DNA from: Pagrus major | Taxonomy: Eukaryota > Chordata > Actinopteri > Spariformes > Sparidae | Reading direction: 5' to 3' | NCBI RefSeq assembly: GCF_040436345.1 | Contig: NC_133218.1 | Coordinates: forward strand, 21,617,570 to 21,681,569 | DNA: 64,000 nucleotides | Shown: in pieces, positions 10,118 to 47,769 of the stretch | Numbering within the stretch: position 1 is the first letter of the stretch | Layout: each line of letters opens with the position of its first letter | Made by a program: the position numbers and the translations under genes | The notes under the pieces: model-generated | The model's input: the letters and a program-made list of their open reading frames with translations, nothing else | What the model was told of the DNA's origin: nothing | Databases searched by the model: none

Positions 10118-13100
10118 ATGTCGGTGTGGCCACTTCTTTTCACCCTGGGAATCACCACAGCCACTGTTGCAGGAGTTGCAGCTCAAGGTGGGTCAAACAC
10201 AAATATCCTGCTTGTTATTGACACATATGTACTGAAAAACACAGCACCCTACCTGCAAATGTACATGCATTTTAAGTAACAGTCAGATGGGAACACTTAC
10301 CAATGTATACACAATATGGACACACGGTAAAAAAATGAGAGAGGCACACCTTTCCACCATTACCTCTTTACAAAGGAAAATTAAAAGTGTATAATGTGTG
10401 GCCTGCAACTGAAATTTTTTTTCCTATTTGTGGATTTATACACAAACTAAACTCGATTGGTTGTTGGCAGTCATGTTTTCTGGATCAGTATATTCCCATA
10501 CAGTAATTTTCCGTGACTGTTTTCTCAATCAGTGTCAAGACCGGACAGTTGTCTAACGCAGTAAGTCGGTGTTAGACAGCTTCAGCTGAATTACTGCTTG
10601 CAGATGTTACAGAAACACACAACTGCATTCAAATGTAGTTATATGAGTGCAGTAAAAACATATTTTCCTTCTAAAACTATTTGGTTACTTATAATGATAA
10701 TTTATATATTTAATTGTTTGATTTCATGTTCGAGATGAATACAACTCACTAACTTTGGAGCAGTGACAATTGAAGTACATTGTCAGATATTAATGTAGTG
10801 CATGGTATAATAATTGTCAGATACAGCCTTGAAATATATCTTGATGTTTGGATTTTTCTCTTGTAGGATCATGGAGAAGAGACAACAGAGAGTCAAGCCC
10901 CTCTGTGTACAACTCTGATGGTAAGTCATTTATTCTCTGATGGTTTGAGTCAAATTCCTAATGTGATAACTACAGTATATTGAACACAGCTAGTATGAGC
11001 TTGTATTCAGGCAATGTTTGTTGTTGTACTTTGTGTCCAGACAACTTTGAGTGGACCACATGGTTTAATGTTGATCACCCCGGAGGCCGTGGAGACTACG
11101 AGCAGCTGGACGCTATCCGCTTCTACTACCGTGCCCGGGTGTGTGAGAATCCCCGAGCAATCGAAGCCAGAACCACTGAATGGGTCTCAGCTCGTGAAAC
11201 TGGGGAGAAGGTCCATGCGGACCCCACTGTGGGCTTCTGGTGCTTGAATGAGGAGCAGGGTCCTGATCGCAACTGCTCCAACTACGCAGTCCGCTTCCTC
11301 TGTCCCAAAGGTTCAATCTTGTAACATCTTTATTATTCATTAAGTCGAAGCCATAAACTCTTCTGACTTTGTTGGTGACTCGCATACAAATAAGAGAGGA
11401 CCTCTTTGATGATCAGTCTTTTCTGGTGATTATTTGACTGTCACTTGCGCTTTTTTTCCCCAACAGATTCCAGTGTGAACAGCCAGGGCACCTGGGGTCC
11501 GTGGTCAGACTGGAGCCAATGCCCCGCCCTCTGTGGTCAGGTGGGGGTCCAAGTGCGCTCCAGAACATGCAAATCTCACTCTCTACCTTGCAGTGGGCCT
11601 AAATTGGAAGGGAAAGCATGCAATGGACCAGAGTGCCCGAAAATAGGTGAGCTACATCTGGCAGACAGATTATTCTCCTGCAATTCAGATTTGGGAGACC
11701 CAGTGTTCACAAAATGGCTAACCTTGTTCAATCCCACCCTTAAGATTGCTCCCTGCAGTGTGTGTTGGGGAGGGTGAATGCTGAGTGTGACGCATGCATG
11801 TGTGAAGAACACATCCTGCTGGGTTCTGTTCGTGGTGCTGGTGGTCTCACCGCTGAAGGGGCTACCATCCTTCGTTCTGACAAACTGCTTACCCTCACTG
11901 ACCACAACGGACATTTCCGCATCCCCGGTATCTGCCCTGATGGCAACACCACCCTGACAGTGAGCCTGCAGGGTCACGCCACCCTCAACGTTGTTGTTCC
12001 CCACAGTTCTGAACGCACTTCTGTCCTCAGTGTCCAGCTGAAAAGAGCAGGTGCAGTGAATGTCTGTGGTGTTGCAGTTCTTGTTAACTTTTGTAACCAA
12101 AAAAGTTCATTTTGAGCTTTGTTAAGCATCTAAGGAAACTAATAGGTAAGGTGTGTTTTATCTCTTATTTTCAGAGAAGCTTCACGTGTTGAGCAGCCCT
12201 GAGAGTAAGGTCAGGAGGGAGGGACAAACTGCCGCCTTCTGCTGCAAAGTGTCAGGAACACCACAACCAGACAAGTATCAATGGTAGGACTCGTAATAGT
12301 GGAACTACAGCCTACAAATGTTGATGAGTCACATAGATGCATCTAATGATTAAATAGCATGGAATATTCACCAACTTTGCTTCTCTTTTCTTCTGTGTGA
12401 ACCAACAGGTTTCATAACGACAGTCTCCTGGAAAAGTCTGACAGCACCTTGGTCCTGAAAGATCTGCGACCTGAGCATAGTGGAGAGTACCACTGCAGAG
12501 CAAGTGGTCCATCTGGGGCTATTAAAACCAAACCAGCTACACTGAAAGTCTTAGGTGTGTTCTCAGTAAATAGATAAACATATTAAATAAATGAACAGAC
12601 TTTGTGAGCATTTAGTAGAGTAATGTATGGTAATGTCATTAGGGTACATTGATATATTTGAGTCCTAGTGATTTGGACTTGAGTCGACTGAAGTCACTGT
12701 TTTGATGACCCAGACAGGAAATAAATGACTTGACTTGTGACATGATGACTCTAATGACTTGTCTTGGGACTTGGGAACTTGCCTCAACTAACCTTAACCT
12801 TGACTGAATGACCTGAGTCATGTCTGTGGGGTACATATTGTGTTATACTTCAGAAAGATGGCAGTATGACCAAACTCAATCAACATTTTTTATCTCATGT
12901 CTTACACAGGTAGAAATGAACATTCGTGTAATCCAAAGCCTGAATCCCACCTCATCCGTCTACCACACGATTGCTACCAAAACAGCACCGACTCCTTTTA
13001 CTACAATGTTGGAAAGTGCCCCTCAAGTACATGTACTGGAAAGCTGGACAATGGCATCAGGTGCAAAGACAAAGTGACTTACTGCTGTGGTGTGCAAAAG

Positions 13101-15269
13101 ATGGAGGAGAGGCAGCTAACATGCCAGGGCTACCAGCTGCCCACCATGGTGGTGACTGAGTGTGGCTGTCAGAAATGTGTCGATACCAAGACCATTGTGT
13201 ATGGTAGGGCCATTGCTGCAGACAATGGGGAACCAATGAGGTTTGGCCATATCTTCATGAATGGAGTCAGAATCAGCCGCACAGGCTACAAAGGTACATT
13301 CTCTGTCCAGGTTCCTCCAGACACAGAGAGGCTAGTCCTGACTTTTGTGGACAACATGCAGAAATTTGTCAACACCACAAAGGTACTTCCATTCAACACG
13401 AAAGGAGGGTCTGTTTACCATGAGATCAAACTTCTAAGAAAGAAAGCTCCCGTGACCATCAGCTCTACTGAACTCAACACTCTGGAGCTTGGAGAGGTGG
13501 AGGGTCAAGAGGCAATGGTTCAAATCCAGATTCCACCCAATTCCTTCTATACAGAGAGAGGAGAAGTCTTCATGGGTAATGTAAATGCTAGCGTAACGTT
13601 CCTCGACCCTAGAGATGTATCCACAGCTGCTGCAGCTCAAAGCGATCTCAACTTTGTAGGAGATGAGGGAGATACCCTGCCGCTGAGAACCTACGGGATG
13701 TTCTCGGTTGACTTTAGGGGTGAAGAAAACAATGAGCCCCTGAACGCAGGTGAAGTGAAGGTGTTCCTGGACTCTGCCCAGGTGAAGATGTCTGAGCACC
13801 TTAATACCATGAAGCTTTGGTCGCTGAACCCTGATACTGGCTTGTGGGAGGAAGAAGGAAGTCTGCTGGTGGAGAAGAAAAGAAGAGGAAAAAGGGAGGA
13901 GAGAACCTTTCTGATTGGAAACATGGAGATCAGAGAAAGACGTCTATTTAACTTGGACGTCCCAGAGAACCGCAGATGTTACGTGAAAGTGAGGGCCTTC
14001 CGCAGTGAACGCTTCATGCCCAGTGAGCAGGTGGAGGGAGTTGTTGTGAGTCTTATAAACATGGAGCCCACAGCTGGCTACTCCTCTAACCCACGTGCCT
14101 GGGGCCGTTTTGATAGTGTCGTCACCGGCCCCAATGGTGCCTGTCTTCCTGCCTTCTGCGATGAACAAAAAGCTGATGCCTACTCTGCATATGTCATGGC
14201 CAACCTTGGAGGAGAAGAGCTGGAGGCTGTCCCTTCTTCTCCCAAACTCAACCCCAACCTCATTGGAGTGCCTCAGCCTTACCTGAACAAGCTGAACTAC
14301 AGGCGGACTGACCACGAGGACCCCAGAGTGAAGAAGACTGCATTCAGCATCAATGTGGCAAAACCAAGTGCCAACACAGCAGAGGAAGGCAATGGACCCG
14401 TGTACACATTTGAGAACTTGAAAGAATGTGAGGAGGCCCCGTTTAGTGCGTCACACTTCCGCTTTTCAAGAGTAGAAGGAGACCGCTACGATTACAACAC
14501 AGTGCCGTTCAATGAAGATGACCCAATGAGCTGGACGGAGGACTACCTGAGCTGGTGGCCCAAGCCCATGGAATACCGGGCCTGCTACATTAAAGTCAAA
14601 GTCAACAGCCCACATGAGCTCAATGTGCGGTCCCGCAACATGGGTGGCACCCACCCGAAGACAGTAGGCCAGCTGTATGGTCTCAGAGACACTCGGAGCA
14701 TCCGTGACATGGACCAGGCAGCTGTTTCAGCTGTGTGCCTCGAATTCAAGTGCAGTGGGATGCTGTATGATCAAGAACGCGTAGATCGTACCCTTGTGAA
14801 AGTGATTCCACAAGGAAGCTGCAAGAGAGATCAAGTCAACACAATGCTTCAGGAGTATCTCGTCAACCACCTACCTCTAGCAGTCAACAATGACACCAAT
14901 GAGTTCACCATGCTTGCACCTCTTGACCCTCTTGGCCATAACTACGGTATTTATACAGTGACAGACCAAGATCCCCGCACAGCCAAAGAGATTGCACTCG
15001 GACGATGCTTTGATGGCACTTCTGACGGTACATCTCGTGTCATGAAGAGCAACGAGGGCATTGCACTGACGTTCACCTGTGGAGATCGTGAGGTGACACG
15101 CCAGAGTGTCTTCCAGGCCCTGCAGAACCCTCAAGGTCAGACACTAACAAGTGTGGTGAGAGGGGAAGGGAGACAGAACCGACGACGCCAGAGGGCCAAT
15201 GCGCCGCGCAGCAGTCGTAGACGTAGCACCAGGAATCCTACAGGAAGACGTGCTGTCGCCATAAGTTAA
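10118..15269 (+). CDS. cilp: Cartilage intermediate layer protein (CILP), 8 coding exons
   Basis: Secreted cartilage matrix glycoprotein; in mammals CILP-1 binds TGF-beta1 and antagonises IGF-1. Coding exons: 10118-10187, 10867-10920, 11041-11310, 11467-11646, 11745-12050, 12175-12283, 12409-12554, 12910-15269. All phases agree and give 1164 aa (human CILP about 1184). In order: signal peptide (MSVWPLLFTLGITTATVAG); WxxW domain, residues about 42-131; thrombospondin type-1 repeat (GTWGPWSDWSQC), about 132-191; a CDACMC segment and carboxypeptidase-regulatory-like fold, about 192-293; one Ig domain with its cysteines, about 294-378; then the large single-exon remainder. A furin-type site RRGKR at about 703-707 matches the position where mammalian CILP is cleaved. 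The C-terminus is arginine-rich. CILP2 is the alternative, but the sequence and 15q-type neighbours favour cilp. Confidence 0.92.
10188..10866 (+). other. cilp intron, nothing recognised
   Basis: AT-rich intron between the signal-peptide exon and the short second coding exon. No repeat or conserved element was identified. Confidence 0.5.
12655..12830 (+). repeat. Degenerate GACTTG/ATGACTTG tandem repeat
   Basis: In the last cilp intron, variants of 'gacttg', 'tgacttgac' and 'gggacttgg' recur about ten times over 180 bp with irregular spacing. It looks like a decayed minisatellite; similar 'gacttgactc' arrays are common in fish genomes. Confidence 0.65.
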
Positions 15270-33700: not shown

Positions 33701-36700
33701 TGGATTAATCTTTTCCGTCTTTTTTCAAGCAAAAATGTCCAACTTTTGCTGCTTTCCTTTGTCATTTATGATCGCAAATGAAGAGTCTTTGGGTTTTGGA
33801 CTGTCTGTTGGACAAAAGAAGCAATCTGATGCCGTCATTTTGGGCTCTGGGAAATGTTTTACATGATATAGACTAAATGATTAGTTGATTAATTTAAATA
33901 TATATTTATAAATGACAAAATTAAATCAATAGGATCTGTGGACACAGGCACCAATTGTCCATTTGTTTGGGGACACAAGCACAAGTTTAAAATGGAAAAT
34001 TTGTATCCATGTGCACAAATCCTGAAGATTACATTTTGATTAATCAATTAGTCTGCTGTCAGTGTGTGTGTTGTACCCATAATTTGGTGGAGAGAGCGTT
34101 GGCTTGTGGCGAGCAGAGGCTAGGCATGTGTTGGGCCATGGTGGGCAGGGATGACAGCAGCCTGTCAGAGGTCAACATCAACAAGGTCTCTGTCTTCATT
34201 CCCGTTATGAGATGGCCGAGCTCCTGCAGCTGGCCTGGAGCGGTCAGCTGGGCGGAGGGGAAGAAGGTGTGAGTGTACACAGAGCATCTCCATACTGAAT
34301 TCACAGTGAGATGAGTTTATAAAATGACTCACGGTGTTAATTGAGGACATCTTCTCGACAATTACGGCGGCCTGAAAAACACAGAGCAAATGAACAACAA
34401 CAAATGACCTTATAAAGTGGTGATTTTGACTGATATGTCATGTATTCTTTATCTACTTGCTCCAGCGCTTTTATACCAGGTGAGATATTCAAATCCAAGA
34501 ATCTGTCTTACTTCTTTGGGCTTCAAAAACACTTGTCCACACAACATTTTTGCCATGATGGACCTGAAAAACAACTATAGGTCTGAAGAAATGAACTCTC
34601 TCAAGACTCTGAATGACGCAGTATAAAAGCGAGACGACAGCTGTGAGGCTGAGGTGAAAGTACAAGGCTGCAGATAGCTCAGGGTGAAGAAAGACCTCAT
34701 GAGCCATCTCACCTCAGGGATCAGTGTGCTGAGGAACGACTGCCTGTCAGCTGTTCCTCAGGCCTACAAGCACCATCTGCCGGGAAACCCAACCATGTCC
34801 AACAAATAGGTGCTTATGCAGTGAAAGGGACTGACTAAACACCCCTCACTCATTTATTTTGCTCACTCACTTGTAAAAAAAAAAAAAAACTGTGCATGTT
34901 AAATAACAGTATAAATCAAGCTGTAGATGATTTCTACTACGTCTTCCACTGAAAATGACAGGTGGAGTTCGCTCCTCTACCTGTGCAGGGCTGAATGAAA
35001 CCGAGCTGAGTGCAGGGAGGGTGGCGAGCAGCTGCGACGGCGTCAGATCCTGCAGGAAAGGCACACCCAGCGCGGGCAGGAGGGGGGCTAACTCTGCCAG
35101 TCGACCAGGACTGAGCGAGGAGGGGATCTTTAATTCTGTGTTGTTCAGTAACAAACTGGAAATCTTGACAAAAGGTTCAGAACAAGCACAGAGACGGCAT
35201 AAATATATTGTAAATGCTCCTTCAATGTGATTGTTAAATGAAAGCACACGATGAAGAAACCACATGTTTCTGCTCCTACCAGACTGCTGGGCAGACTCAG
35301 TCCCTCATGTACGCAGGCCATGACGATGTCCCTGATGACGCTGAAGACCTCAGTGTCTTTGTACACAAGCAGGTCCTCTGGGTCTGCCAGGCACGAGATA
35401 TTACCCAGCCTGAAAAATTAAAAACACTGTTGTAACAACTTGCAAAAAAAATTGATTTTGTAAAAAAAAGTCCACAAAAGCAAAATACAAAGCCATTCTA
35501 CTGGTACAGTACATTTCACAGTAATATGTTACCTTTTCAGTAGATGTTGCTGATGGATCTCTAGATTCAACATTTATGTAAGAATTTAAGTTTGAAAACT
35601 ACAGAAATTAACTAAAAATGATCAACAGAATGTGAAGATGTTACATGTTACATGTCTAAGACGACTACTGTGTTGCAGAGATATCTAACGAAGTTAGCAT
35701 GCTAACCAGCTAGCACTGGGACTCAAAACCCCTTTCTTCTGGTGGTCTAAAGCTCCTGTGCTAACGGTGGGAGCACCGACACTCCCCCAGCATTCCAACT
35801 AGCTGCACAGCTAACTGAGCTAAAAGCTAGCGGCACTCATTGATGTATAGAATACAGTTAGCAGCAGTTAGCGGTTACTCTGCTTTGTTTGGAGTCTAAA
35901 TTCAACCAGTGACCATTCTTACATATTGCACCTTTAAAAATTAGATATTATTGTGGACTGTTATTCCTGTTAATTACATGCCGCTGTAAGTTAAAGAATA
36001 GATCAATATAGTGTAGTATAGTGTATATTGCATAGCACAATATCTCACACATTCAAGTAACTTTATGGCAAATGTGCAAATGAAGCAACAAACAAACGAC
36101 TGTTGTTCATACGACATTGTTGCTTTACACTACCAAGGGCCAGAATGTATCTCATATCTGACCTAATGTCTAATGAACCGTTAACATGGACAGGAAGGTC
36201 AGGAGGGGCCTCCACAGTCATTCCTAACCTGGTAAAATCCTGAGCCGTCAGGTTTCTGTAGGTGCCGATCACGCTGTGAGCGATGAATTCCTGCTTGAGG
36301 GAGGTGAGGGTGTTTCTCTGCAACACATCCAGCCCGTCCAACAGCTGTGGATAACCATAATAACAGAATACGGCAATAATAACATTTCTGTGAGTTTTAT
36401 CAAATGAATGTGGCAACAACAAGCTCACAGATATTCGCCAGTATTCACAAGATATGAGAGAAGAAACAATTTATCTGTCTTCACCCCCTCCAGGATCATG
36501 AACTCATGCAAAGGAATAGAAATGCTTATTTGCCCTCCTGTGAGGTTAATATTCAACATTTACTGATGCAAGCCGGGCAGAGGGAAAGCTTTAAAGGGAT
36601 AGTTTGACATTTTGGTGAATATGCTTATTCACTTTCTTGTAGAGTTAAAAAAAAATTGATACCACTCTTATGTCTGTACGTTAGAGATGAAGCTACTCCC

Positions 36701-39700: not shown

Positions 39701-42700
39701 TGGTGGTGCCAGAACCGTGACCATGAATGTCTGTGCAACATTAACCAAAAGCCTTGAATCAGCCGATAAACTTATGTTGCCATCCCGTTTCATTAACTTA
39801 TTGAGATCTTAAACGTAACATTTACGCACTGAAATGTCTAAAAAGGCTAGACCTCTGTTACATATTTTATTGAGGAGTGTACATTATATTAAATGTTTCC
39901 AACAATGAACCCAAAAATCTGTTCCCCTTTCCGGGGAAATATTAAATACTATGCCTAATACTATGAGAGTGAAGAAGGAAGTTGGTGAACGTGACAAAGC
40001 ATAACATCCAATTTTAAAACATCACCTTGTCTGTGAACCAGATTTCTGTCTGACTCCTATCACATTTCAGATTTTCATAGGCAATGGTGGTTTTAACAAT
40101 GAAGACAACAACTCCCATGATCCCACTGTACCTCACAGCTTCTTTTCTGTTTTCATTGTTTTAACTGAGAGACCCCTAGTGGCAGAAGTTACATGCTGTG
40201 CGTTTAGGTTGTGGTGTTAGTCACCTTGATGACGAAGAATTCATCGCTGGTCACATCTCTTGCTGTCTGCATCAAGCTGGTTAAGACTCTCTACAGGAGA
40301 AACACACACACATACACACACAGGGTTGTTAACAGACGGATTATGTAATCTGGTCGTCTCTTTTGACACATTATTGTAATTGTCAAATCAAGTGTAAGCC
40401 AGTGGAGATTACACAGAGAGGAAGACATCCATTACGTTGATATCGATGACAGGAGTGTAACTGTACACCAGCTGTAGGCCGGCTGTACACTGGAGGTCAA
40501 CGGCTATACAGTGACAGTCATGGTAACTGATATGGATGAATAATTAGATAAACTATAAAGTCAGTGAATGAACAGAAACTGATTGAGCCTGTATGAATAA
40601 AAGATGAGGGAGAATCTCTATTCACACGACGCTCTGATTAACCTTCAGAATTAATTTACAACAATGTGATAAAATATACTCAACCAAATAAAAAACATAA
40701 AATGGCTCCGTACAGCTAGTCTGGCATGATCCAGAAGCCCTGAGACTGCAAAGTGATTTTAAAATGAGGTCATTTACACCCTCGATGTGCAGTCACACCG
40801 CTCGTGCAGCCACACTACCTACCCCAAAGCACTGCAGCAGGACCTTCTTTTTGTCAAAGTTGGTTTCCCTCTCGAGATACTGAACGACAGACGTTAACAC
40901 ACTCAGCCTGATGTTCTCAGTGACGTGCAGCGAGGTGTTCTGGACCTCCTCCAGGGCCAACAGGATCACCACAGCGGTGCTGACTGTCTGCTCCAACACT
41001 GTGGTCACAGGTGGAGTCAGCAGATTCTCCACCCTGGACCTCAGACTCTCCACCCAGCAGCGCACCATCATCTGCAGGGCCATGTTCTGACTGGCCCCAG
41101 GCTGGCAGGCTGGGGTGAGGTCAGCTGAGCAGGACCAGTTGAAACGCTTCACCAGGTTTCTGGCCAGGCACACATCTGGATCTGCAGTGGTGCTGTTGTT
41201 GTTGATGGTGGTGGTGTAGTTGGTGTAGGTGGTACACATGCTGCCCACCCACATACTAGACGGCTCCCGGGACAACAAAAAGAGAAGACCGGCGTTAGGG
41301 CAGACAGAGGAGACAAAATTGGTCTGGTCGTTCTCCCAGCAGAGGGTCAGGAGGGCTGCGTCTGGGACAGAGATGCTCCAGCTGGAGTACTGGCACTGCT
41401 CTGCGGGGTCGAACCCAGTCAAGTCTCCTCCTTCTCCCCCATCTCCACCAGGAGATACCCCTGGATCTGAATAGTTGGCACAGTGCTGTATTAACCAGGT
41501 GTTGTCCTGATTGGCCAACAGGTTCTGGAGGACGGTATCATTGGCGCAGACTTTGGAGGTAAAGTTAAGTGGGTCGATCTCAGCGCAGAGAGCCAGTTCA
41601 GTCATGTCCACGATGATGCGACGGGTCCACTCAGAGTACTTACACACCTAGAGAGCACATGATTGGGAATACAACAGCAGAATATAAAATAACAGTTTAA
41701 CTTGTTTTATGTAACAGTTCACTATCGTCCTTCCAGTGATTAATAGCGCTGCCTTAAGGATTTTGTTGCATATTTTATAACTGAACAATTATCTTACTGT
41801 GTGCGTTTGCTTATATACGGTTTTGAATTCTAACATATTAGTGTTATTAAAAATATATATATTACATTTTTTTATCAAGTTTCACGTCAGGACATAATAT
41901 TTTGTAAAATTATAACAATAAGGCATTTGTTCAACCAAATAATAATATTAATAATAATAATAATAATTGTGTAATTCTGTGATATTTTCTGAGATGGTTA
42001 TTGTATTGTGAAAATCGAACTATGATACTCGGAAAATAGTGTTCAAGACTCGTATCCTGGGATATTCAGTATGTGCGGCATTGTCCATGTGTTCATCTGG
42101 TTTCCTTGTAGGTTGTGTGACCACACTCAGGTAGCTGCTCATGTGTCACGTGAAATGCATTTTGCCTCTTACTTCCCTTCTTCTGATTGGTCGTTGCTGT
42201 TAGTCCGACAACATGTTCATGTCTCTAGAAAGTAGGTAAGTGCTGGTGATGGTCCTTTGACTGAATGTTCAGTTTTGTCTATGAAATGGGACTTAAAATA
42301 ACATTTAACGTCTACATTTACTCTTAGTTTTATTTTTGGTGCACTTATTGAGCCACTATTTCTTTATTTATTTTTTATTTTGGCTTCCATAAACAAGTTA
42401 ATTAGACTTTGGATGCGCAGATCCATGTCATCCAGGTAAAATACCCACCTGTGGTAACACGGCTGTTGCCTCTATTTCTTTAATGTCTGTGCAGACTGAT
42501 GTCAGCCATTCGTTCTGAGGGTCTTGCAACAGCTTTTCAAACACAGACGCTTTGCAGCAGACATTCTTCTGAAACGCGAGCTGATCGTACTGCCAGCAGA
42601 GGCCGACCACTGAACTGTCCACCTGCCGTTCTCCCCACGTCTGGTAGTCACACCAGTCTGTGATGCTGAAGGGCTGCGTCGGCTCAGGGGGCCGGAGGCT

Positions 42701-45700
42701 GAGAGAGGTGTTGCAGTGATTTTCAAGCCAGGCATTTGCCTGGTTACGCAGCAGAGTAGTCAGAAAGGTTTTGTTAGAGCAAACCTCTTGAGTGAAACCA
42801 CTGTTATCGAGGTGGATGCACTGAGACAAAACGTCGGTGGTAATCTGCGTCACGTCGTGCCACTCTGAGTAACGACAAGACTCTAACATATGTGAGCCCA
42901 TGTCAGGGAGCGGTGGTGGAGGGGGAAAGACTGTGCAGTTAGGCATGAACTGCATATTTTCAGGGTTGGAGAATAAAAGCATGAAGAATCTGGTGTGCTC
43001 ACAGATGAGTTTGATCAGTCTGGGACTGTCCAGACTCATGCAGAACTCCAGTAAGGCGGGGTCTACCAGGACTGATGACTGGTCCAGCCACTGCTCATAG
43101 ACGCAGAACTGACTCACCATGTAGCCAGGGTCTACCGAGGAGTTCCCACAGTATCCATACAGCCAGCTGTTCATCTGATCAGACAGCAGCCTCCTCATCA
43201 ATACAGCATTGTTACACACCTGCTTCACAAACTCCTCACGCTCATTATCGCTGCACAGCGACACGAGGACAGCGTCCACCGCCTCGTTTTCTAACCAGGT
43301 GTTGTAGTTGCAGGCGAGCTGTTTGAGGTTGGAGGCCTCTCTGGCTGCTCGATGAGGGCGGCTCTCAGAGGAAGGGGTGAAGGAAGGATGTGTGAGCCCG
43401 ACACTGCAGTCAGATGACCTGCTGAGGAGTGGAGACACCAGTGCTTGAATAACATAACACATGTTGCTCCACACCTGCTCTATCTGGTTAGGGCTGAGGG
43501 ACTTAAGTGCCTCGCAAAGGGTGTGCACAGCCGGAGAGTGCCCAGCTCCTGAACCCATGTCAGCACACAGTGTGTCATTGAACCTGGCCAGGTTGTTGCG
43601 ATCACACTTTAGCATGATGTCGTGGTCGTTATCGGCGTCCTCTGAGACGCTGCGTTGGAAAGGGAAGGTGGGAGTCTGGCACTCTGGCCCTGGATATGTG
43701 CAATGAGACTGTTCAGGAGACAGGAAGATTTCCAGCAGGATGTCAATGATGGAGGCACCAAAGGACCAGCTCACATTGTGGTTCACCCCCCTAAACAAAA
43801 CGGACATTTGATCATTATTACAGATTCTTCTATAACATTTACAAACATGCATACAGACGGAGAAGATGGTATTAAAGGATCTTGAGTTTACGGCCGTCGC
43901 CATCTCGGTTTTTGGGGGCCAGAAGTGACTATATTTGGATGAGAGGATAGCTTGATTGGTCCTGAGTAAGAACCCGAGGAAAGACCATGATAGCAACTTG
44001 TCGATCACAAGGTAGCCACACCCTAAAGCATACCCCTCTTTGTTGTCTGTTTTGCTCTAAATGGGACCATAATTTACTAAATTAGCATCACGGTCTGAAA
44101 CTAATGATTGAGACCATAAACTCATTAGGAAACTGTTTATTGAGGTAATAAATCTAGTGAGAAGTAGGGTTATTTTCTCATAAGCTTACATACTATGAGA
44201 CTTGAAGTGCAACCACACTCATAAAAACATTGCTCTATAGCGCCACTGGTGGTCAGAGAGTCCACAGAGCAGCTTTAATATGTAAAGAAAAAAAGGGGGG
44301 TTATGTGAATTTAACCAATGACTCACCACATAATGAGCTGCTTGAGATCTCCTGCAGAACAAGTGGTAAAAAAATGTAATTAGCATAAAAATATGTAATA
44401 AACTGTGTATTATACAGGACAGTTTAAAAAAATGTTAAAGAGTAATGTTTACCTTGCTCACAGACATCTATTCCATCTAAAGACGGTATTCTGATTCCAA
44501 ACTGTAAAGCTATTTTGATGTAGTCCATCGGTACTTGGAGAAACGATGCCATGAACTTTGAGACATACGTCACAGCCGAGTCCACGAGGCCGCTGATGAC
44601 ATTCATCAAACTCCCCGAGAGAGGGAGACTGGACAGCATATTTATAAACGTCTCCTGGAAACCATTAAATGCTGCTGACGTTGAGTCTCCCATCCTGAGG
44701 TAGGCCCTGAGGAAGCTGTTTGAGTCTCCGTTCAGAGGAGTGCACGTCTGGGATCTCAGGGACGACACAAACGTCAGCAGCGGCTGTACAACCTCCAGAG
44801 ACACGGTCTTTGTCAGTTCTGCCTCCAGCCCACAGTCCTGTCTCCCAGACAGAATACAGACGACAGTTCTGGGGAGGTCATCTATGAATCCTTCTCTCAG
44901 CAGCGGTTGAAAGACAGCGTACACGTTACTCATGGCATTGTAATATGCCTCTAAGTCGAAACCCTCTGCTGGAGTTGAGGTGCTGAAGCTGCGTTTGTCT
45001 TCATTTCCACCGGACAAAGAGTGGATTTGATTTATAACTTTGTGGATGTCTTCCTCTAACTGTGCAGCCTCGTCAGGAGTCTGGTCAGTCTGTCTTTGGA
45101 TAAAATTAGGTTGTGAAGACACTCGCTTGACTTCGTATGTGATCCCTGCAGACATGAAGAAAACACAAAAATATGGATTTCTGTTGGCCCACAGTGACAC
45201 TTCAAGGTTTATCTACTCTTCGCTGTTGTGAAAATTCTAGTCACAACTTATACAACATATCAAGGATTGACCTGAAAAACATGTATGACAAAGAAATCAA
45301 TTTTTCTTTCTGTTCACAAGATTAATAAGTAAACAATTAGAGCCTGATCGATATATTGATTGGCCGATATTATTGGCTGTTACTGGCCTATCACAGATAT
45401 ATCGGTATTGGCGTATATGTTATGGAGGACTGATACTGCCAAAATCAAAAATAAAGTAAGTAGTACAAATGTCATTAAATTAAGAAAAAATAATACTAAA
45501 AATAAATTCAGGCATTCCTTAATGTGTAAAATGTGACATAAATTGATATTTCTGTTTTATCTTGCTTCTGTATTAATTTCCCTATTTACTTACTTTCTCA
45601 TTTGTTTAACCACTTTGTTTTATTCATTTTTTAATGTATTTATTTAGTTACGTTTTTACTTATGTATTATCTTGTGAAATGCAAAAAGAAAAGTATATAG

Positions 45701-47399: not shown

Positions 47400-47703
47400 T
47401 TTTCATCTCAGTTAGGTGCTTTTTATAGCCAGCCACAAGCTTCTGGCCGTCCTCTGGCTGAAGTTTTAACTGCTCCTCTTGACAGAATCGGTGAAGTTAC
47501 TAGACTTGGACTTGTTTCTTCAGCATAGTCCACATGTTCTCGATGTTGTTCAAGTCAGGACTTTGGGAAGACCATTCAAAGACCTCAATTCTAGCCTGAT
47601 TTAGCCATTTCTTTACCACTTTTGATGTGTGTTTGGGATCATTGTCCTGTTGGAACACGAACACGAATGTGTTTTGTGACAAAGTAGTTTGTGTTCCTCT
47701 CAT
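47400..47703 (-). mobile_element. Tc1-like transposon fragment (transposase C-terminal end)
   Basis: The minus strand encodes [17 protein letters not shown], then [11 protein letters not shown], the last part of a Tc1/mariner DDE transposase including the final catalytic Glu region. Upstream transposase sequence and the terminal inverted repeats are missing, so it is a dead 5'-truncated copy. Confidence 0.85.
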
Positions 47704-47769
47704 CCCATCACAGAAACATGAGAGCTGTAGAGCTCAAGACTGCCATGATATACATGTTTTTGTTGGGTC

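What the first reader, a model, noticed from the sequence alone, without database searches (positions are those of the whole stretch)
41234..43312. Six stereocilin modules with invariant cysteine spacing
Exons 4 and 5 of strc encode six consecutive modules of about 55 residues. In every one, the second-to-third cysteine interval is 13 and the third-to-fourth is 22 residues, after a C-x-Y-x2-W start. Only the first interval varies (18-21). This regularity points to a small disulfide-bonded fold repeated as a rod-like array in a protein that links hair-bundle structures. A partial seventh unit (two cysteines 13 apart) may precede it near residues 316-329. The predicted fish protein is about 200 residues longer than mammalian stereocilin, so module number may vary between lineages.
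Basis: partly seen in the sequence, partly recalled or inferred. Interest (0 to 1): 0.72.

Follow-up and report, generated by a model that had tools for sequence, protein, structure and literature searches.

The report
Six-module array in a stereocilin paralog
A fish relative of the hearing protein stereocilin carries six tandem copies of a small four-cysteine unit with strict spacing, while a second, more mammal-like stereocilin gene in the same fish has three irregular ones, so the repeat is real but the gene was probably mislabelled.

Summary
The unit has no significant match in Pfam or, by sequence, in the PDB. Two corrections. (1) The gene belongs to the stereocilin family (PF21058) but is probably not the one-to-one orthologue of mammalian STRC: 4.2 Mb away on the same chromosome lies a second stereocilin gene that human STRC (recalled sequence) matches with 812 against 260 bits; it groups with human at 93% bootstrap, though alternatives are not rejected by AU. 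(2) That gene has three irregular units with human-like spacing; one keeps CxYxxW. So module number and regularity differ between paralogues within one fish. The 'partial seventh unit' has no profile support. Cys-free linkers, on the whole rich in Pro and Gly, favour beads on a string over one continuous solenoid. Outcome: an uncatalogued repeat unit, amplified in a probably old stereocilin paralogue.

The parts
43148..43312 (-). module 1 (C-x-Y-x2-W ... 19/13/22)
   Evidence: leave-one-out E 5.9e-19
42935..43105 (-). module 2 (21/13/22), the most divergent
   Evidence: leave-one-out E 2.3e-11
42713..42877 (-). module 3 (19/13/22)
   Evidence: leave-one-out E 8e-19
42491..42652 (-). module 4 (18/13/22; an extra Cys directly after C3)
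   Evidence: leave-one-out E 1e-18
41480..41644 (-). module 5 (19/13/22)
   Evidence: leave-one-out E 2.1e-20
41234..41395 (-). module 6 (18/13/22)
   Evidence: leave-one-out E 4e-17
42449..43790 (-). exon carrying modules 1-4 (ag|GGGGGTG ... CAG|gtgggt)
40823..41647 (-). exon carrying modules 5-6, then 101 residues, then the first 36 positions of PF21058
41648..42448 (-). intron in the linker between modules 4 and 5
44453..45145 (-). upstream coding exon of the same gene (no signal-peptide exon was identified)
   Evidence: open frame through splicing
44327..44351 (-). 25-base exon; splicing gives CEQGDLKQLIMWGVNHNVSW, like human (recalled) [20 protein letters not shown]
34333..34371 (-). 13-codon exon AAVIVEKMSSINT; aligns with the 13 residues that exon 12 would encode in recalled human STRC
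   Evidence: loss of exon 12 removes 13 amino acids in PMC5711943
26652..40290 (-). remaining downstream exons of the stereocilin-family gene (several exon ends approximate)
   Evidence: PF21058 169 bits; blastp to recalled human STRC E 2.5e-100

Best explanation
The window gene is a paralogue of stereocilin in a fish, probably an old one, and its N-terminal half carries six tandem copies of one homologous four-cysteine unit. SHOWN: the units share descent; related units occur three times, irregularly, in a second, more mammal-like stereocilin gene of the same genome; the array lies about 100 residues before the PF21058 stereocilin domain. INFERRED: the four cysteines form two disulfides that staple a small, probably helical bead. 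I favour C1-C2 and C3-C4, because those two intervals vary between units (17-21, and 20-22 with one outlier of 31) while C2-C3 is 13 in 10 of the 12 units compared (11 in the other two). Cys-free linkers of 14-28 residues, on the whole rich in Pro and Gly, join the beads into an extended spacer, which holds the C-terminal mesothelin-type part of a hair-cell surface adhesion or link protein at a distance. The six canonical units arose by duplication of a unit like the third one of mammal-type stereocilin.
For: Module homology: leave-one-out E 2e-11 to 2e-20 (search space of one sequence). PF21058 in the own genome: 15 matches at E up to 1 (14 over the cut-off), all in two places on C4. The second locus: the module profile scores 26.4 bits against a best of 7.6 in 1000 shuffles. 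Its third unit keeps all seven columns that are invariant in the six modules (C1 Y3 W6 C20 C33 L42 C55) and scores 48-63 against every window module. Paralogy: by tblastn at the same cut-off (E 0.1) recalled human STRC sums 812 bits to the second locus (residues 81-1749; 15 pieces, one of them out of place) and 260 bits to the window gene (6 pieces, residues 989-1733); at E 0.01, 782 and 260. C-terminal identity is 41.8% against 32.7% over 490 columns; bootstrap 93% of 200 replicates. The recall has length 1775 and matches 6 of 6 published residues. Linkers: the five linkers plus 21 residues after module 6 hold 27 Pro/Gly of 117 residues against 15 of 330 in modules, p 5e-8, and no Cys. The intron between modules 4 and 5 lies in a linker. 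Hair-cell context, from passages: PMC10299642 mentions two zebrafish 'stereocilin-like' genes, now retired identifiers, among transcripts enriched in its hair-cell profiling; PMC11524865 names strc among orthologues uniquely expressed in zebrafish hair cells. Which zebrafish gene corresponds to this one is unknown.
Against: No structure could be predicted. Hydrophobic-moment tests were not significant (p 0.20-0.51), and a crude Chou-Fasman average gave strand 1.05 against helix 1.02, so the helical bead is not shown. The AU test does not reject the other two placements of the paralogue (p 0.118 and 0.071; bp-RELL and c-ELW exclude only the third), so a fast-evolving fish duplicate is possible. 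The spliced window model does match human STRC upstream too, weakly (human 273-382, 27%, E 5.5e-06). The module profile alone barely finds the recalled human units (4.1 bits; 6 of 1000 shuffles do as well). Human unit 3 scores higher with window module 4 (38) than with the third unit of the second gene (28), and a unit tree is poorly resolved (support 26-85). Two of the six inter-module stretches have only one Pro/Gly each. Module 4 has a fifth cysteine.
Confidence: 0.6

Rival explanations
1. The array is part of one continuous ARM/HEAT-type superhelix running through the whole protein, as was predicted for stereocilin in 2009; the cysteines merely reinforce solenoid layers, as two disulfides do in mesothelin.
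For: Sathyanarayana et al. (PMC2628672; parts 1 and 2 of the text and passages) obtained 15 ARM-repeat hits of 18 for stereocilin submitted in three pieces. Mesothelin is an ARM/HEAT solenoid with disulfides C302/C326 and C442/C468, 24 and 26 residues apart (PMC10035497, passages), similar to C3-C4 here.
Against: The aligned mesothelin-superfamily region of human stereocilin is given as 1194-1666, far from the array. Linkers of 14-28 residues, on the whole rich in Pro and Gly, separate the units, which suits separate beads better. The module profile finds no mesothelin chain in the PDB at E up to 10.
Confidence: 0.25
2. The window gene is the fish one-to-one strc, and the 25.88 Mb gene is the divergent duplicate.
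For: The AU test does not exclude it (p 0.118).
Against: By tblastn, human STRC (recalled) residues 81-974 match the 25.88 Mb gene in five pieces in order and the window gene in none; only the spliced window model gives a weak upstream match (human 273-382, E 5.5e-06, and part of the main match from 668 on). Units 1 and 2 of human score best with units 1 and 2 of the 25.88 Mb gene (68 and 58).
Confidence: 0.1
3. Fish-specific duplication: both fish genes are co-orthologues of STRC, and the window copy evolved faster and expanded its array.
For: Both lie on the same chromosome 4.2 Mb apart, as a local duplication would; this topology is not rejected by AU (p 0.071).
Against: The best tree groups human with the 25.88 Mb gene (bootstrap 93), bp-RELL and c-ELW exclude this topology, and the identity of the fish pair (30.4%) is lower than that of either with human (41.8%, 32.7%).
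Confidence: 0.25

Closest known systems
Stereocilin (STRC; Pfam PF21058)
   Same: PF21058 about 100 residues after the array; downstream homology to recalled human STRC (blastp E 2.5e-100); a 13-codon exon where human exon 12 encodes 13 residues
   Different: six regular 13/22 units against three irregular ones in human (recalled) and in the second fish gene; by tblastn human residues 81-974 match the second gene but not the window gene
Mesothelin (MSLN) fold
   Same: superfamily relation of the C-terminal part of stereocilin, by published alignment; disulfides closing stretches of 24 and 26 residues
   Different: the module profile finds no mesothelin chain by sequence; the array is outside the published shared region
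Otoancorin (OTOA; recalled, unverified sequence)
   Same: C-terminal similarity to the window gene (blastp E 4e-19)
   Different: no module hit, no CxYxxW, no 13/20-22 triple

Membership tests
Stereocilin family (PF21058) | PF21058 match above the curated cut-off | tested here: met
   48.4 and 169.1 bits against 26.6; again
Stereocilin family (PF21058) | sequence homology along stereocilin | tested here: met
   blastp to recalled human STRC E 2.5e-100, 28% over 1079 columns (human 668-1733); N-terminal part weak (human 273-382, E 5.5e-06)
One-to-one orthologue of mammalian STRC | closer to human STRC than any other gene of the genome | tested here: not met
   the 25.88 Mb gene is closer (812 against 260 bits; 41.8% against 32.7% identity, bootstrap 93, AU alternatives not rejected). 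Human sequence recalled
Mesothelin superfamily | mesothelin-type C-terminal region | tested here: inconclusive
   a joined 330-residue C-terminal piece matches no Pfam family at E up to 1 and no mesothelin chain among its PDB hits at E up to 10, but the model matches recalled otoancorin at E 4e-19
Mesothelin superfamily | GPI-anchor signal and N-terminal signal peptide | not tested
   the first and last exons were not identified
ARM/HEAT solenoid (for the array) | stacked helical hairpins with a continuous core | not testable with these tools
   structure prediction switched off; secondary-structure proxies inconclusive
Known Pfam repeat or domain (for the module) | match to a curated model | tested here: not met
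   6 modules scanned: 5 match nothing at E up to 1, module 1 matches EABR at E 0.15, under its cut-off

The most novel reading that the evidence does not exclude
The unit is an uncatalogued, disulfide-stapled extracellular repeat domain that characterises the stereocilin N-terminus. Vertebrates had two stereocilins before the fish-tetrapod split, and the lineage that mammals lost doubled and regularised the array into a six-bead spacer, so that bead number tunes the reach of hair-bundle or otolith-membrane links.
Probability: 0.3. Interest if true: 0.6.

Novelty: new variant of a known kind. Interest (0 to 1): 0.42.

Why it matters
STRC is a common deafness gene (PMC10668944, part 2 read). In both fish genes the stretches scanned before PF21058 have no significant Pfam domain (human not tested). 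The regular paralogue reveals a repeat unit that is hard to see in the degenerate human sequence. That gives a frame for domain borders in the N-terminal half and for reading cysteine variants there. It also warns that 'strc' in a fish can mean either of two stereocilin genes.

Tried and rejected
Secondary structure by hydrophobic moment and Chou-Fasman averages (scales recalled): inconclusive. A mapping of human units to modules 3, 4 and 5, suggested by C3-C4 segments, was dropped after whole-unit scores showed no consistent pairing. Sequons after C4: my pattern counted 2 of 6, so not pursued. Partial seventh unit: rejected on profile score. Relatives in the prokaryote and viral collections: none confirmed (with one exon as query; alignment queries 23 and 24 were rejected as too variable). 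Own-genome search with modules 1-4: three matches, of five candidates scored: itself, L011 (E 0.32) and L012 (E 2.6). That search is not sensitive: it missed the exon of modules 5-6, which one search found at 3e-17, and the second gene. L011 shows C-x-Y-x2-W with 19/13 spacing but no fourth cysteine at 20-22; I treat it as chance. Gene order: 10 of the 49 ORFs of 70 codons or more beside the second gene were scanned; 4 gave E2F or S8-peptidase fragments, which does not settle synteny with STRC. Literature: 10 searches; none of the titles and abstract starts listed describes these modules (one search listed 20 of 842, 15 of 35, 12 of 20). Subscription papers are mostly not held, nor are PMC3375590 (Verpy 2011) and PMC6926040 (Avan 2019).
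Full report
WHAT IS THERE. The gene runs on the minus strand. Two exons, 43790-42449 and 41647-40823, encode six units. Cysteine intervals are 19/13/22, 21/13/22, 19/13/22, 18/13/22, 19/13/22 and 18/13/22. Seven columns are invariant: C1, Y3, W6, C20, C33, L42, C55. C-x-Y-x2-W occurs six times in all six frames of the window, each time in a module; the 13/22 triple occurs nine times, three of them outside the modules. Shuffling the 720-residue two-exon protein 20,000 times gives at most three triples and never the full motif. Each unit is found by a profile of the other five with E between 2e-11 and 2e-20 (search space of one sequence). Identity outside shared cysteines is only 18-39%, so the duplications are not recent. 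The intron lies in the linker between units 4 and 5. The six stretches after the modules (five linkers plus 21 residues after module 6) total 117 residues, have no cysteine and are on the whole rich in Pro and Gly (27 of 117 against 15 of 330, p 5e-8); two of the six have only one such residue.

WHAT GENE IT IS. Pfam's stereocilin model PF21058 starts 101 residues after the last module (48.4 bits) and continues downstream (169.1 bits). My model, without the signal exon and the C-terminal tail and with some approximate exon ends, has 1966 residues. It matches human stereocilin with E 2.5e-100 over human 668-1733, and weakly over human 273-382 (E 5.5e-06). The human sequence is recalled from memory. 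As checks, its length is 1775, as printed in PMC2628672 (parts 1 and 2 and passages read), and 6 of 6 published residue positions agree: R344, C590, E1275, G1366, F1495 and P1520 (PMC10668944, part 2 and passages; checked). Loss of human exon 12 removes 13 residues (PMC5711943, passages); these align with a 13-codon exon in the window (34371-34333).

A SECOND STEREOCILIN GENE. The own-genome search with PF21058 gave 15 matches (16 candidates scored), all on contig C4 in two places: the window gene and a gene at 25.88 Mb. I fetched that region. By tblastn at one cut-off (E 0.1), recalled human STRC matches the second gene from residue 81 to 1749 with 812 bits in 15 pieces, one of them out of place, and the window gene from residue 989 to 1733 with 260 bits in 6 pieces; at E 0.01 the sums are 782 and 260. 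Over 490 gap-free C-terminal columns, identity to human is 41.8% for the second gene and 32.7% for the window gene; the two fish genes share 30.4%. A four-taxon tree with recalled otoancorin puts human with the second gene (bootstrap 93), but the AU test does not reject the alternatives (p 0.118 and 0.071). I conclude that the second gene is most likely the real strc and the window gene a paralogue, perhaps older than the fish-tetrapod split.

UNITS IN THE SECOND GENE AND IN HUMAN. The module profile finds the second gene at 26.4 bits (best of 1000 shuffles 7.6). Its units read 20/13/31 (after removing an intron between C3 and C4), 17/13/21 and 19/11/20. Human (recalled) reads 21/13/20, 17/13/20 and, for the last two intervals of the third unit, 11/20. 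The 13/20 triple occurs three times in recalled human STRC, one of them out of register with the units; at least two are reached in 2 of 5000 shuffles. Human units 1 and 2 score best with units 1 and 2 of the second gene (68 and 58). The third pair shares the 11/20 spacing but scores only 28, below human unit 3 against window module 4 (38). Unit 3 of the second gene keeps all seven invariant columns and scores 48-63 against all six window modules, as expected if a unit of that type was amplified. The module profile alone is weak on human (4.1 bits; 6 of 1000 shuffles equal it), and a unit tree has support of only 26-85.

HOW IT PROBABLY WORKS. In mammals stereocilin is associated with horizontal top connectors and tectorial-membrane attachment crowns (PMC12399869 and PMC12784207, passages). 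In zebrafish, strc is named among orthologues uniquely expressed in hair cells (PMC11524865, passages), and two stereocilin-like genes, identifiers now retired, are mentioned among transcripts enriched in hair-cell profiling (PMC10299642, passages). The published superfamily alignment covers human stereocilin 1194-1666, so the array is a separate N-terminal region. I infer small stapled beads on flexible linkers acting as a spacer. Pairing C1-C2 and C3-C4 is a guess from which intervals vary. Mesothelin's disulfides close stretches of 24 and 26 residues (PMC10035497, passages), which makes such hairpin closure plausible. None of this is shown: structure prediction was off, and two simple tests for helix were inconclusive. 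A continuous ARM-type solenoid (PMC2628672) remains the main rival.

The name strc is probably wrong by one paralogue. The idea that module number varies is right, but the contrast seen here is between two genes of one fish. The seventh unit is unsupported. Spacing in other fish could not be tested.

Noticed in passing
10962-15266 (+): Cartilage intermediate layer protein (CILP) gene: Mucin2_WxxW, TSP_1, carboxypeptidase-regulatory-like and CILP domains in four open frames.
   Followed up: no
about 43810-44056 (-): The intron upstream of the array exon holds an interspersed repeat: 78 of the 80 scored matches of query P0001 in the genome fall on this end of the query (residues 1-117).
   Followed up: partly
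47503-47733 (-): Fragment of a DDE-type transposase (PF13358, E 4.8e-09) upstream of the gene.
   Followed up: no
L011 from 1507 (G000:C21:9813261-9813404): An open frame with C-x-Y-x2-W and 19/13 cysteine spacing but no fourth cysteine at 20-22; E 0.32. Likely chance, perhaps a lone degenerate unit.
   Followed up: partly
42491-42652 (-), module 4: An extra cysteine directly after C3 makes the cysteine count of the six modules odd (25), which leaves room for an inter-chain bond.
   Followed up: no
L021 8297-9355 (second stereocilin gene): The deafness variant Cys590Arg of human STRC (PMC10668944) lies after the array and, in recalled human sequence, aligns with a cysteine of the second fish gene (SQLCVDP).
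   Followed up: partly
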